DNA of 64,000 nt from Bifidobacteriaceae bacterium. GTDB taxonomy: Bacteria; Actinomycetota; Actinomycetes; Actinomycetales; Bifidobacteriaceae. Position numbers and translations under genes: made by a program. This document shows, one piece after another, positions 31,060 through 33,923 of this stretch (positions are counted from its first letter, which is position 1; each line of letters begins with the position of its first letter). The stretch lies in contig JALCQD010000003.1 of the NCBI GenBank assembly GCA_022651005.1, positions 186,001 to 250,000 of the forward strand, given 5' to 3'. Under the pieces are notes generated by a model. It was not told where the DNA came from. It was given only the letters and a program-made list of their open reading frames with translations, and searched no databases.

Positions 31060-32058
31060 ATGAGCGCGACGAATGCACACGACGCCAAGGTTGTGGTTCT
31101 GTGCGGGGGTCTGAGCCACGAGCGGGACATCTCGATAGCTTCTGGCCGTCGAGTGGCCGGCTACCTCGAGGATGCCGGCTGGCACGCCACCACACATGAC
31201 ATGGATGGCAGCTTGCTGGATTACCTGCACGATCCCGAGACGCGACCGGACGTAGTGTGGCCGCTGCTGCATGGCGCGAACGGTGAGGACGGTTCGATTC
31301 GTGACATTCTCGAGTTGGCGGACCTTCCGTACATCGGAACGCGTCCCGTTCCCTCTCGCACAGCGTGGAACAAGCCGATCGCAAAGTCTCTCGTAGCGCA
31401 TGCAGGGCTGTCCACACCGCGCTCTGTGACGCTTCCCGAGTCAATGTTCATAGAGTTGGGCGCGCGCCGCGCCATGGAGTTGCTGGTGGACTCTCTAGGA
31501 CTGCCGCTGTTTGTGAAGCCAACGATGGGCGGCTCGGCACTCGGATGCTCTCTGGTGACGAAGGCCTCGGATTTGCCGCAGGCGATGGTGACGTGCTTTG
31601 CGTATGGCCAGGTAGCACTCATCGAAAAGGCCGTGATTGGTACCGAGGTCTCGGTGTCGATTATCGACGCTGGAAACGGCACGGGAAACGTGCGCGACGC
31701 GGAACCGCTTATTCTTCCGCCGATTGAGATCGAAAGCGCCGGAATTTACGATTACGAGGCGCGTTACACTCCTGGTCCCACCAAGTTCTATGTTCCCGCT
31801 CGTCTGGATTCTGCGGTTTTGGCCACGGTGCAGGATGCGGCGTTGACGGCACATCGTGCGCTTGGTCTGGAGGACATTTCGCGCACCGACTTTATCGTCG
31901 ACGCCGAGGGCGTTCCCCAGTTCCTCGAAGTCAACGTGGCACCCGGTATGACCGAGTCGTCCCTGTTGCCGCAAGCAGCTGTGGCCGACGGGCATCACCT
32001 GCCGGATCTGTATTCGTCCTTGGTTGAGAAGGCTCTGGCGCGCGGTATTCGGCGATAA
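31060..32058 (+). CDS. ddl: D-alanine--D-alanine ligase
   Basis: This ATP-grasp enzyme joins two D-alanines for the peptidoglycan stem peptide. Motifs are LCGGLSHERDIS (substrate loop), HGANGEDGSI, the ATP-grasp KPTMGGSALGCS, and the C-terminal FLEVNVAPGMTESSL with metal-binding residues. At 333 aa it has the usual length. The start at 31060 has GAAGGGAG 6 nt upstream; a start 8 codons earlier has none. It lies 54 bp after the aminotransferase and the two may share an mRNA. The region downstream to the antitoxin gene (convergent) shows no strong hairpin. Confidence 0.88.
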   Translation: MSATNAHDAKVVVLCGGLSHERDISIASGRRVAGYLEDAGWHATTHDMDGSLLDYLHDPETRPDVVWPLLHGANGEDGSIRDILELADLPYIGTRPVPSRTAWNKPIAKSLVAHAGLSTPRSVTLPESMFIELGARRAMELLVDSLGLPLFVKPTMGGSALGCSLVTKASDLPQAMVTCFAYGQVALIEKAVIGTEVSVSIIDAGNGTGNVRDAEPLILPPIEIESAGIYDYEARYTPGPTKFYVPARLDSAVLATVQDAALTAHRALGLEDISRTDFIVDAEGVPQFLEVNVAPGMTESSLLPQAAVADGHHLPDLYSSLVEKALARGIRR

Positions 32059-32124
32059 AGGGTACCCCTGTAAATAGGCACCGTAATCACTCACCGTTCG
32101 ACGAGGCATCTACGCCCTGAAAAC

Positions 32125-32445
32125 TTATTCCTTAGAATCATCAGAATCATCATCGCTGCCCACTACATCCGGACTCTCAAGTCCTGCTCTGAAAACTTCA
32201 CGCACGAAATTGGGAAATGGCGTACCGCTCTCACGTGCGCGCTTTTTTGCTTGTCGTACGTCACTCGCTGGCAACCGAACCGATACGGATACCATTGGTT
32301 CGTCGTAAACTCTCGGACGGCCAAACTGCTTGCGCGTGATGAGTGGCCCCGGAGTTCCATGATAAATTCCGTGTTCTGCATCATCAGCCCACTTATCAAG
32401 CATCTCATCAGTGATGACGACGCCATTCTCCCCTATATGATCCAT
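32125..32445 (-). CDS. Putative antitoxin with C-terminal ribbon-helix-helix-type domain
   Basis: This 106-residue acidic protein has a C-terminal half (VSVSVRLPASDVRQAKKRARE..PNFVREVFRAGL) that looks like a ribbon-helix-helix DNA-binding and dimerisation domain. The N-terminal half would contact the toxin. Its gene is second, overlapping the toxin gene by 38 nt, so the two are translationally coupled. The order toxin first, antitoxin second resembles BrnT-BrnA. The start at 32445 is an ATG after GGGAAGG; a TTG 9 codons upstream is possible. Confidence 0.72.
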   Translation of the reverse strand: MDHIGENGVVITDEMLDKWADDAEHGIYHGTPGPLITRKQFGRPRVYDEPMVSVSVRLPASDVRQAKKRARESGTPFPNFVREVFRAGLESPDVVGSDDDSDDSKE

Positions 32446-32752
32446 GGCCTTCCCTTCCCAATAGATAAGCAATTTCCCTGTAATCCAATCTCATCTCTTC
32501 CTCGAAACCTCGTGTGCATGCCATGGCGTGAAACACGAGATAGTACTTTTCTCCGGTCTCCTCGTCTAGGTCCAAGACAGCTATCATTTCAAGTACTCGC
32601 GCCGAAATATCAAAGCCAATTGCCGTGTACTGTGTTGGGTTCTTCCAAAATCTAGGCCGTAAATGTCTATAATGCAGCCACGCATACTCCACATCCGCCT
32701 TCGTTATTTCTGGGTGACGCCGCGGCACCCTGTCAGCTACTTCTACACGCAC
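32408..32752 (-). CDS. Putative type II toxin (BrnT/RelE-like small protein)
   Basis: This 114-residue protein starts at a GTG behind GGGAGGTG. The opening (VEVADRVPRRHPEITKADVEY) and the central strands (AIGFDISARVLEMIAVLDLD, KYYLVFHAMA) resemble a small toxin family paired with CopG/BrnA-like antitoxins in actinobacteria. The strand pattern is loosely that of BrnT. I infer an RNase toxin, but I see no proven active site. Together with the following antitoxin gene it forms a compact two-gene module that is lone in this otherwise housekeeping stretch. Confidence 0.6.
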   Translation of the reverse strand: MRVEVADRVPRRHPEITKADVEYAWLHYRHLRPRFWKNPTQYTAIGFDISARVLEMIAVLDLDEETGEKYYLVFHAMACTRGFEEEMRLDYREIAYLLGREGHGSYRGEWRRHH

Positions 32753-32966
32753 CTAGCACCTCCCGTAGGGGATGCCTACTTTCGTATGCAAAAGTAAAGA
32801 CATCCTAGAATTCTGTGCTCTCATTATGAATTTCACCCCGCTGAAACGCCACTGCTAACTGCACTTGTGGATAACTCACGCTGGGCCTGAACACCGCTCG
32901 CCACGCGTACGTCCGCCGCTGACGGAAATGCTCGCTTTTGACACGTGATTTCGCTATTTTTGAGGT

Positions 32967-33923
32967 ATGTCAGAAACTGAATCAACGAATTATCATGACG
33001 TCATCATTGTCGGCTCGGGTCCCGCGGGCTACACTGCGGGCGTCTATTTGGGCCGTTCCGAATATAATCCCTTCATGCTCACCGGCGCCCTCACCCCTGG
33101 CGGGCAGCTGGTGAATACCACCACAGTCGAGAACTTCCCGGGATTCCCCGACGGCGTTCTTGGCCCCGACCTCATGGATAAGATGCGCGATCAGGCCGAG
33201 AAATTCGGCACTATCCTTGAGTACGACGACGTTGTGAGCACGGACCTTTCCGGCGACATCAAAACAGTCACCACTGACGGCGGCGAAACGTATTCCGCCA
33301 AGGCCGTTATCCTCACCACCGGCTCCGAATACCGCAAGCTCGGCATTCCCGGCGAAGAAAAATTTGGCGGCCACGGTGTCTCCTACTGCGCCACGTGCGA
33401 CGGCTTCTTCTTCAAGGACAAGAAGATCGTGGTGGTTGGCGGCGGCGACTCGGCCATGGAAGAGGCGACGTTCCTCTCTCGGTACGGCTCGTCGGTGACG
33501 CTGATTCACCGTCGTGAGGAGTTCCGCGCCTCCAAGATCCTCGTGGACCGTGTCAAGGCAAATCCGAAAATCAATCTGATGCTGAATTCAGTGGTCACCG
33601 AGATCAAGGGCGACGATAAGAACGGCGTCACAAGCCTTGCGCTGAAGAATACCGTAGACGGAACCGAGAGCACACTCGATGCGGACGGCGTCTTCATCGC
33701 CATCGGCTACACGCCCCGCACGGACTTCCTGAAGGGTCAGGTCGGCCTCGACCCTGACGGCTACATCCTCACAGAGGGTGCCTCCACCAAGACGAGTCTT
33801 CCCGGTGTCTTCGCCGCAGGCGACGTCACCGACCGTACCTACCGTCAAGCGATTTCGGCCGCAGGCATGGGCTGCCGCGCCGCCATCGACGCGCAGAATT
33901 ACCTCACCGAGCACGAGGACTAG
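32967..33923 (+). CDS. trxB: Thioredoxin-disulfide reductase
   Basis: This flavoenzyme reduces thioredoxin with NADPH. FAD-binding motif GSGPAGYTAGVYLGR, redox motif CATCDG, NADPH-binding VVGGGDSAMEEA, and the C-terminal FAAGDVTDR block are all intact. At 318 aa it has the usual length. TATTTT ends 6 nt before the ATG and no good Shine-Dalgarno is present, so the mRNA may be leaderless. In many actinobacteria trxB sits close to murJ and the par genes, which agrees with this neighbourhood. Confidence 0.96.
   Translation: MSETESTNYHDVIIVGSGPAGYTAGVYLGRSEYNPFMLTGALTPGGQLVNTTTVENFPGFPDGVLGPDLMDKMRDQAEKFGTILEYDDVVSTDLSGDIKTVTTDGGETYSAKAVILTTGSEYRKLGIPGEEKFGGHGVSYCATCDGFFFKDKKIVVVGGGDSAMEEATFLSRYGSSVTLIHRREEFRASKILVDRVKANPKINLMLNSVVTEIKGDDKNGVTSLALKNTVDGTESTLDADGVFIAIGYTPRTDFLKGQVGLDPDGYILTEGASTKTSLPGVFAAGDVTDRTYRQAISAAGMGCRAAIDAQNYLTEHED

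What the first reader, a model, noticed from the sequence alone, without database searches (positions are those of the whole stretch)
32125..32752. Compact toxin-antitoxin pair of an unfamiliar family
Seen: toxin-first order, 38-nt overlap, ribbon-helix-helix-type antitoxin, and a toxin opening VEVADRVPRRHPEIT that I only loosely match to BrnT. Inference: a type II module lone among housekeeping genes.
Basis: partly seen in the sequence, partly recalled or inferred. Interest (0 to 1): 0.5.

Follow-up and report, generated by a model that had tools for sequence, protein, structure and literature searches.

The report
RelS-like toxin with ribbon-helix-helix antitoxin
Two overlapping small genes form a likely bacterial toxin-antitoxin pair whose poison resembles an RNA-cutting toxin described in 2026, probably held in check by a different kind of DNA-binding antidote; it is a new branch of a known type of system.

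Summary
In detail: on the minus strand a 114-aa gene (32408-32752) overlaps a 106-aa gene (32125-32445) by 38 nt. No Pfam, NCBIfam, PADLOC or PHROGs model reaches its cut-off for the first protein, but relatives occur in 53 of 189 genomes of its own family at E <= 0.01. Of 100 distinct toxin frames, 90 are followed by a relative of the second gene, one is fused to one and five are followed by an HTH gene. A family profile finds the solved toxin RelS (9SDC, E 7.5e-7), a 2026 RNase that cuts 16S rRNA in the anti-Shine-Dalgarno region. The predicted fold matches BrnT and RelE. RelS K9-H10 and H64 appear as R12-H13 and H75 (His in 98 of 98 frames with a residue there). The antitoxin joins a ribbon-helix-helix to an acidic N-terminal helix whose DxWxD matches RelI residues that cover the RelS active site. 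Two sister species lack the pair at this site. Best reading: a type II module with a RelS/BrnT-like RNase toxin and RHH antitoxin. Toxicity and target are untested.

The parts
32408..32752 (-). toxin gene, GTG start, 114 aa; RelS/BrnT-like RNase fold predicted; R12-H13, R52, E55, H75 are the conserved candidate active-site residues
32125..32445 (-). antitoxin gene, ATG start, 106 aa; N-terminal acidic helix (TDEMLDKWADDAE) and C-terminal ribbon-helix-helix, acidic tail
32408..32445 (-). 38-nt overlap of the two reading frames
32759..32764 (-). Shine-Dalgarno-like GGGAGG before the toxin start
   Evidence: read from the sequence
32452..32456 (-). Shine-Dalgarno-like AAGGG before the antitoxin start, inside the toxin gene
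   Evidence: read from the sequence
32770..32806 (.). candidate operator: interrupted dyad GGATG..TACTTT - AAAGTA..CATCC just upstream of the toxin
   Evidence: seen by eye; not supported by statistics: the best simple dyad was reached by 231 of 300 shuffles and the repeat finder did not list it
32059..32909 (.). stretch between the D-Ala-D-Ala ligase gene and trxB; the toxin and antitoxin in it are absent at this site from two sister species

Best explanation
A bicistronic type II toxin-antitoxin module. The first gene encodes a small RNase of the RelE/BrnT fold, nearest among solved proteins by sequence to RelS, with R12-H13 and H75 in the active site. When free it would stop translation by cutting RNA, perhaps 16S rRNA near its 3' end as RelS does. 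The overlapping second gene encodes an antitoxin that dimerises and binds operator DNA through its C-terminal ribbon-helix-helix, and lays its N-terminal acidic helix (about T12-E24, with D17, W19, D21) across the basic/histidine active site, as RelI does to RelS. Loss of the antitoxin would free the toxin. Shown here: the gene pair, its conservation, homology to RelS, predicted fold, conserved residues. Inferred: toxicity, neutralisation, RNA target, dimerisation, autoregulation.
For: Toxin-first pair kept across Actinomycetota: 105 of 115 toxin ORFs have a downstream antitoxin-profile hit against 87 of 5397 other ORFs in the same loci; of 100 distinct toxin frames 90 have such a partner, 1 is fused to one and 5 have an HTH partner. 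Toxin profiles to RelS 9sdc_C: E 7.5e-7 and 4.6e-6. AlphaFold2 pLDDT 81-96 by blocks over residues 1-80; matches 7vd7_A Z 8.6, BrnT 3u97 Z 7.3, RelE1 Z 6.4. Position 75 is His in 98 of 98 frames with a residue there. RHH: 29 of 34 chosen partners match RHH_1 at E <= 1; Arc repressor probability 0.99. The HTH partner in L057 matches RelI at E 1.3e-6, over its DEWLD; RelI D8 and D12 bind RelS K9, H10, H64, R69 (PMC13284704, section 23 part 1). Toxin and antitoxin absent from the same site in 2 of 2 sister species.
Against: No activity data. The single window sequences find neither RelS, RelI nor any other PDB chain; the link needs the family profile. RelS R69 is not conserved: T80 faces it, R81 is one place off. 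The toxin's end is of low confidence (residues 102-114). Foldseek E-values are weak (best 0.012, with unrelated chains between), and Z of 7-8 can arise by chance (note). 9SDC is not among the fold matches, so RelS was matched by sequence only. The DxWxD match is short: position 19 is Trp in 10 of 34 and position 21 acidic in 14 of 34 chosen partners. No significant operator dyad or promoter.
Confidence: 0.8

Rival explanations
1. A BrnTA module proper: an RNase of the BrnT family (PF04365) with a BrnA-type RHH antitoxin.
For: Same gene order and size and an RHH partner; fold match to BrnT 3u97 Z 7.3; one of 47 relatives touches PF04365 at E 0.03; a B. longum subsp. infantis protein is annotated as BrnT family toxin (PMC8477406, passage; not compared with the window).
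Against: No PF04365 match for the window toxin at E up to 10; hhalign against 12 BrnT sequences gives probability 9.6, though in the expected register; the tree sets the 12 BrnT rows apart from this family plus RelS with full support; no PF04365 match at E <= 1e-5 in the genome.
Confidence: 0.12
2. A decayed or domesticated module: toxin inactive, antitoxin kept as a small regulator.
For: One lone copy; lower GC than most of the surroundings, as for a recent insertion (weak); RelS R69 not conserved.
Against: Both frames intact with SD-like sites; candidate catalytic residues R12, H13, R52, E55, H75 all present.
Confidence: 0.12
3. Same module and fold, but the target is not the 16S 3' end: for example mRNA on the ribosome as for RelE, or free RNA as for BrnT. 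(A rival about the target only, so it overlaps the best explanation.)
For: Fold-mates have different targets (PMC13284704, passages and discussion).
Against: The closest solved relative by sequence is RelS.
Confidence: 0.5

Closest known systems
RelS-RelI (Rv2663-Rv2664, PDB 9SDC; PMC13284704)
   Same: Toxin homologous by profile (E 7.5e-7), toxin-first order, active-site residues K9-H10 and H64 kept as R12-H13 and H75, antitoxin with an N-terminal DxWxD stretch.
   Different: RelI is a ClpC2-like HTH protein; the window antitoxin is RHH. Window toxin is longer (114 against 78 aa). RelS R69 not conserved.
BrnT-BrnA of Brucella abortus (PF04365 / PF14384; PDB 3U97)
   Same: Fold (Z 7.3), toxin-first order, RHH at the antitoxin C-terminus (PMC11980606, passage), a basic-His pair K16-H17.
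   Different: No significant sequence match; separate branch with full support. BrnT lacks the C-terminal helix that RelS has; the window model has helices 81-86 and 91-100.
RelBE (RelE1 9G12, RelE2 3G5O, E. coli RelE)
   Same: RelE-like fold, Z 5.4-6.4.
   Different: No PDB sequence match to any RelE; gene order and RelB-type antitoxin differ (recalled).

Membership tests
Type II toxin-antitoxin module | adjacent small genes, conserved together across species | tested here: met
   105 of 115 toxin ORFs against 87 of 5397 control ORFs
Type II toxin-antitoxin module | toxicity neutralised by the partner protein | not testable with these tools
   needs expression
RelS toxin family | sequence homology to RelS | tested here: met
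   profile A1 to 9sdc_C E 7.5e-7, A4 4.6e-6; in the tree RelS joins this family and BrnT stands outside. The single window sequence alone did not match
RelS toxin family | K9-H10 and H64 equivalents | tested here: met
   R12-H13 and H75 in an alignment with intermediates. The HMMER alignment sets the first pair one place off
RelS toxin family | R69 equivalent | tested here: not met
   T80 at the aligned place, R81 next to it. The paper calls R69A a slight reduction in one place and R69 indispensable in another
RelS toxin family | cleavage of 16S rRNA between C1520 and U1521 | not testable with these tools
   needs RNA mapping
RelI antitoxin family | ClpC2-like HTH protein | tested here: not met
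   window antitoxin is RHH
BrnT (PF04365) | match over the Pfam cut-off | tested here: not met
   no match at E up to 10
BrnT (PF04365) | BrnT fold | tested here: met
   3u97 Z 7.3, rmsd 2.4 over 72 residues; fold shared with RelE, so not decisive
Ribbon-helix-helix antitoxins | RHH domain | tested here: met
   29 of 34 chosen partners match RHH_1 at E <= 1; Arc repressor probability 0.99, rmsd 1.4 over 40 columns; the window sequence alone is below the cut-offs

The most novel reading that the evidence does not exclude
A large actinobacterial clade of RelS-type toxins carries a conserved acidic neutralising helix that has been joined to different scaffolds (RHH, RelI-type HTH, and a short form without RHH), so that the antitoxin's plug and its DNA-binding half evolve separately; RelS-RelI would be one swap within it, and cutting the anti-Shine-Dalgarno end of 16S rRNA would be the shared activity.
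Probability: 0.28. Interest if true: 0.6.

Novelty: new variant of a known kind. Interest (0 to 1): 0.42.

Why it matters
The RelS toxin, described in 2026 in mycobacteria, has many relatives in gut bifidobacteria and Coriobacteriia that are paired mostly with RHH antitoxins; the window toxin has no Pfam or NCBIfam name. That would give harmless members in which to ask whether cutting the anti-Shine-Dalgarno end of 16S rRNA is general, and how one toxin clade changes its antitoxin scaffold.

Tried and rejected
Strict BrnT membership: rejected on Pfam, profile and tree. Prophage cargo: the single window protein found nothing in viral contigs; a 7-row alignment found 4 loci with one and the same toxin; of 9 ORFs of L062 given to PHROGs (the pair included) one matched, a MazF-like protein, so no phage structural gene was seen there; no match in the phage collection and one weak plasmid match, in Collinsella, E 0.02. 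Operator dyad: not above shuffles (none listed at that place). Promoter and terminator scan on 32000-33000: counts near the shuffled mean and no minus-strand site. A 16S 3'-end pattern was not found in the draft genome; inconclusive, the rRNA may be missing from it. Pfam PF18993 'Rv0078B-related antitoxin' touched 6 of 47 toxins, best E 0.0099: weak and not pursued. RelS does not appear among the fold matches, whose library ends in April 2026; whether 9SDC is in it I could not see. A paper search for 7VD7 found none, so that molecule is named only by its PDB title. The HTH partners reach no Pfam cut-off (4 of the 5). Literature: searches 'BrnT'+'Bifidobacterium', 'toxin-antitoxin'+'Bifidobacterium'+'ribbon-helix-helix', 'RelS-RelI' and BrnTA terms listed no paper whose title or abstract start concerns RHH-paired RelS relatives; one search showed 20 of 33 papers. 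Passages were read in PMC7354421, PMC8477406 and PMC11980606. Subscription papers were not searched, nor the supplements of PMC13284704.

Full report
Observation. SD-like sites precede both (by eye). The flanking genes are a D-Ala-D-Ala ligase and thioredoxin reductase. The genome, 2.16 Mb in 6 contigs, has one copy.

Is it real and conserved? The window toxin alone has no match in Pfam, PADLOC or PHROGs at E up to 10 and only one far below cut-off in NCBIfam (RecX, E 0.13), and none in the PDB. Yet homologues at E <= 0.01 lie in 53 of 189 genomes of its own taxonomic family, own genome included, in 4 of 16 genera; a profile finds them at E <= 0.001 in 38 of 396 genomes sampled over the phylum; and a scan of species genomes brought 50 loci out of 81 candidate stretches, in Bifidobacterium, Olsenella, Thermophilibacter, Slackia, Eggerthella, Gordonibacter, Collinsella, Actinomyces and Arcanobacterium among others. 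Over 114 loci I counted 100 distinct toxin frames (identical cores merged; two are pieces of one broken gene, L028). 90 have a downstream hit to the antitoxin profile at E <= 0.1: 80 over N-terminus and RHH, 9 over the N-terminal part only, 1 over the RHH only. The other ten: L023 is a toxin-antitoxin fusion in one frame; L052, L053, L054, L057 and L059 have instead an HTH gene, and these five are related to each other; L026 has a 75-aa ORF that by eye resembles the N-terminal part; L044 is a short frame without a partner; L045 has no recognisable partner; L060 has an RHH-like 47-aa ORF below my length cut. Control: 105 of 115 toxin ORFs against 87 of 5397 other ORFs of 60 aa or more have such a hit downstream. 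The control includes overlapping frames, and the antitoxin profile was built from partners of these toxins, so it shows linkage, not independent discovery.

What is the toxin? A profile of 25 relatives finds 9sdc_C, the RelS toxin, at E 7.5e-7; a profile of 47 rows gives 4.6e-6. RelS was described in 2026 (PMC13284704; abstract, sections 21, 22 and 26, first parts of 23 and 27, and passages read): an RNase T1/BrnT-like toxin that cuts 16S rRNA between C1520 and U1521, whose toxicity is severely reduced by K9A, H10A and H64A. The AlphaFold2 model of the window toxin (47 rows: the window's plus 46 of the 51 distinct frames, five short ones left out) has mean pLDDT 81, blocks of 81-96 over residues 1-80, and pTM 0.70, with the order strand, two helices, four strands, two helices. 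Its best solved matches by VIA-align are 7vd7_A (Salmonella toxin-antitoxin complex, Z 8.6), BrnT 3u97 (Z 7.3), RelE1 9g12 (6.4), RelE2 3g5o (6.3) and, with some unrelated chains between, further RelE, YoeB and HigB toxins. Foldseek's E-values are weak (0.012 for 7vd7, 0.05 for BrnT, with unrelated chains between), its probabilities 1.00 and 0.99.

Active site. In the 47-row alignment G46, R52, H75 and A76 are invariant and R12, H13, A24, W25, R34, D48, G51, E55 and E86 nearly so (the window itself has Ala at 51). Over the 100 frames position 75 is His in 98 with 2 gaps, position 55 Glu in 95, position 52 Arg in 91. In that alignment position 13 is His in 68, because frames with KHG or RHG in place of RHP are set one column off. 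An alignment of 21 chosen frames with RelS lines K9-H10 up with R12-H13 and H64 with H75; the HMMER alignment is one place off at the first pair. RelS R69 is not conserved. Some relatives (L018, L020, L021, L024) have KRP and so lack the first His.

What is the antitoxin? 29 of 34 chosen partners match RHH_1 at E <= 1 (33 of the 54 partners plus the window's, chosen to leave out near-copies and most forms without an RHH, so the share is biased upwards). The model (mean pLDDT 79, pTM 0.44) has a helix at 13-24, a loose linker and helices 60-73 and 77-90; Foldseek finds Arc repressor (probability 0.99, rmsd 1.4 over 40 columns, E 0.41) and VapB, TacA and FitA antitoxins. The N-terminal stretch TDEMLDKWADDAE is in the part shared with partners that lack an RHH. 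Position 17 is acidic in 32 of 34. In RelI, D8 and D12 of helix 1 bind RelS K9, H10, H64 and R69; the L057 HTH partner matches RelI at E 1.3e-6, and the alignment shows D-E-W-L-D at RelI 8-12, the same D-x-W-x-D as D17-W19-D21 of the window antitoxin. The motif is short, position 19 is Trp in only 10 of 34 and position 21 acidic in 14 of 34, so common descent of the helix is a suggestion, not a result.

Tree. In a tree of 105 rows (92 of the 100 frames, 8 with cores under 60 residues dropped; RelS; 12 of 25 BrnT loci, the others missed by my pattern) the BrnT rows stand apart with full support, and RelS falls in a group of 16 (90/86) with both RHH- and HTH-paired toxins, next to RHH-paired L047 (88/89, below the starred level). 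The window toxin groups with L002 and L003 (96/91). Only 87 columns were used, the bootstrap had not quite settled, many forks are open, and the root is the midpoint. The RelI-type label needs 2 changes on this tree, with one origin not ruled out. This fits antitoxin exchange within one toxin clade but does not prove it.

Site. In the two sister species of the genus held here, the ligase and trxB genes are 157 and 129 bp apart with no toxin or antitoxin hit; in the window the gap is 912 bp. Of 30 trxB loci fetched, 11 showed the ligase within the flank, and the pair was found only in the window's own. GC is 0.49-0.52 in the three 300-base blocks from 32000; of the 20 other blocks between 29000 and 35899 two are as low (0.510, 0.503), the rest 0.537-0.627, so the dip is suggestive only. 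One sister (G163, 76% complete) has its own pair of this superfamily elsewhere. So the module was gained here or lost in the sisters.

Mechanism. Most likely: free toxin cuts RNA and stops translation; the antitoxin covers the active site with its N-terminal helix and represses the operon through the RHH. My odds: type II module about 0.93; RelS/BrnT-like RNase with RHH antitoxin about 0.8; 16S anti-Shine-Dalgarno target about 0.35. Nothing was tested for activity.

Noticed in passing
L023 1471-2082: Toxin and RHH antitoxin read through in one frame as a 203-aa fusion, beside the two-gene form in close relative L014.
   Followed up: partly
L005, L015, L016, L017, L022, L097, L105: Partners match the antitoxin profile only over the N-terminal part and end in another stretch, for example PITPEVRAAIDRAVAYWDAKDAE; L005 and L015 have two such genes in tandem.
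   Followed up: partly
L018, L020, L021, L024: Toxin subfamily with KRPWL in place of RHPEI, so without the first active-site His, yet with an intact RHH partner.
   Followed up: no
L142, ligase-trxB gap of G163: By eye, a perfect inverted repeat of at least 27 bp with a short loop lies in the gap where the window has the toxin-antitoxin pair.
   Followed up: no
L172, about 1208-1740: Sister genome G163 has another toxin-antitoxin pair of the same superfamily at a different place.
   Followed up: partly
window 32125-32160: The window antitoxin ends in an acidic tail (SDDDSDDSKE) that its nearest relatives L002 and L003 do not have.
   Followed up: no
alignment A4, PF18993: Pfam's 'Rv0078B-related antitoxin' touches 6 of 47 toxins weakly (best E 0.0099); the label may need a second look.
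   Followed up: no
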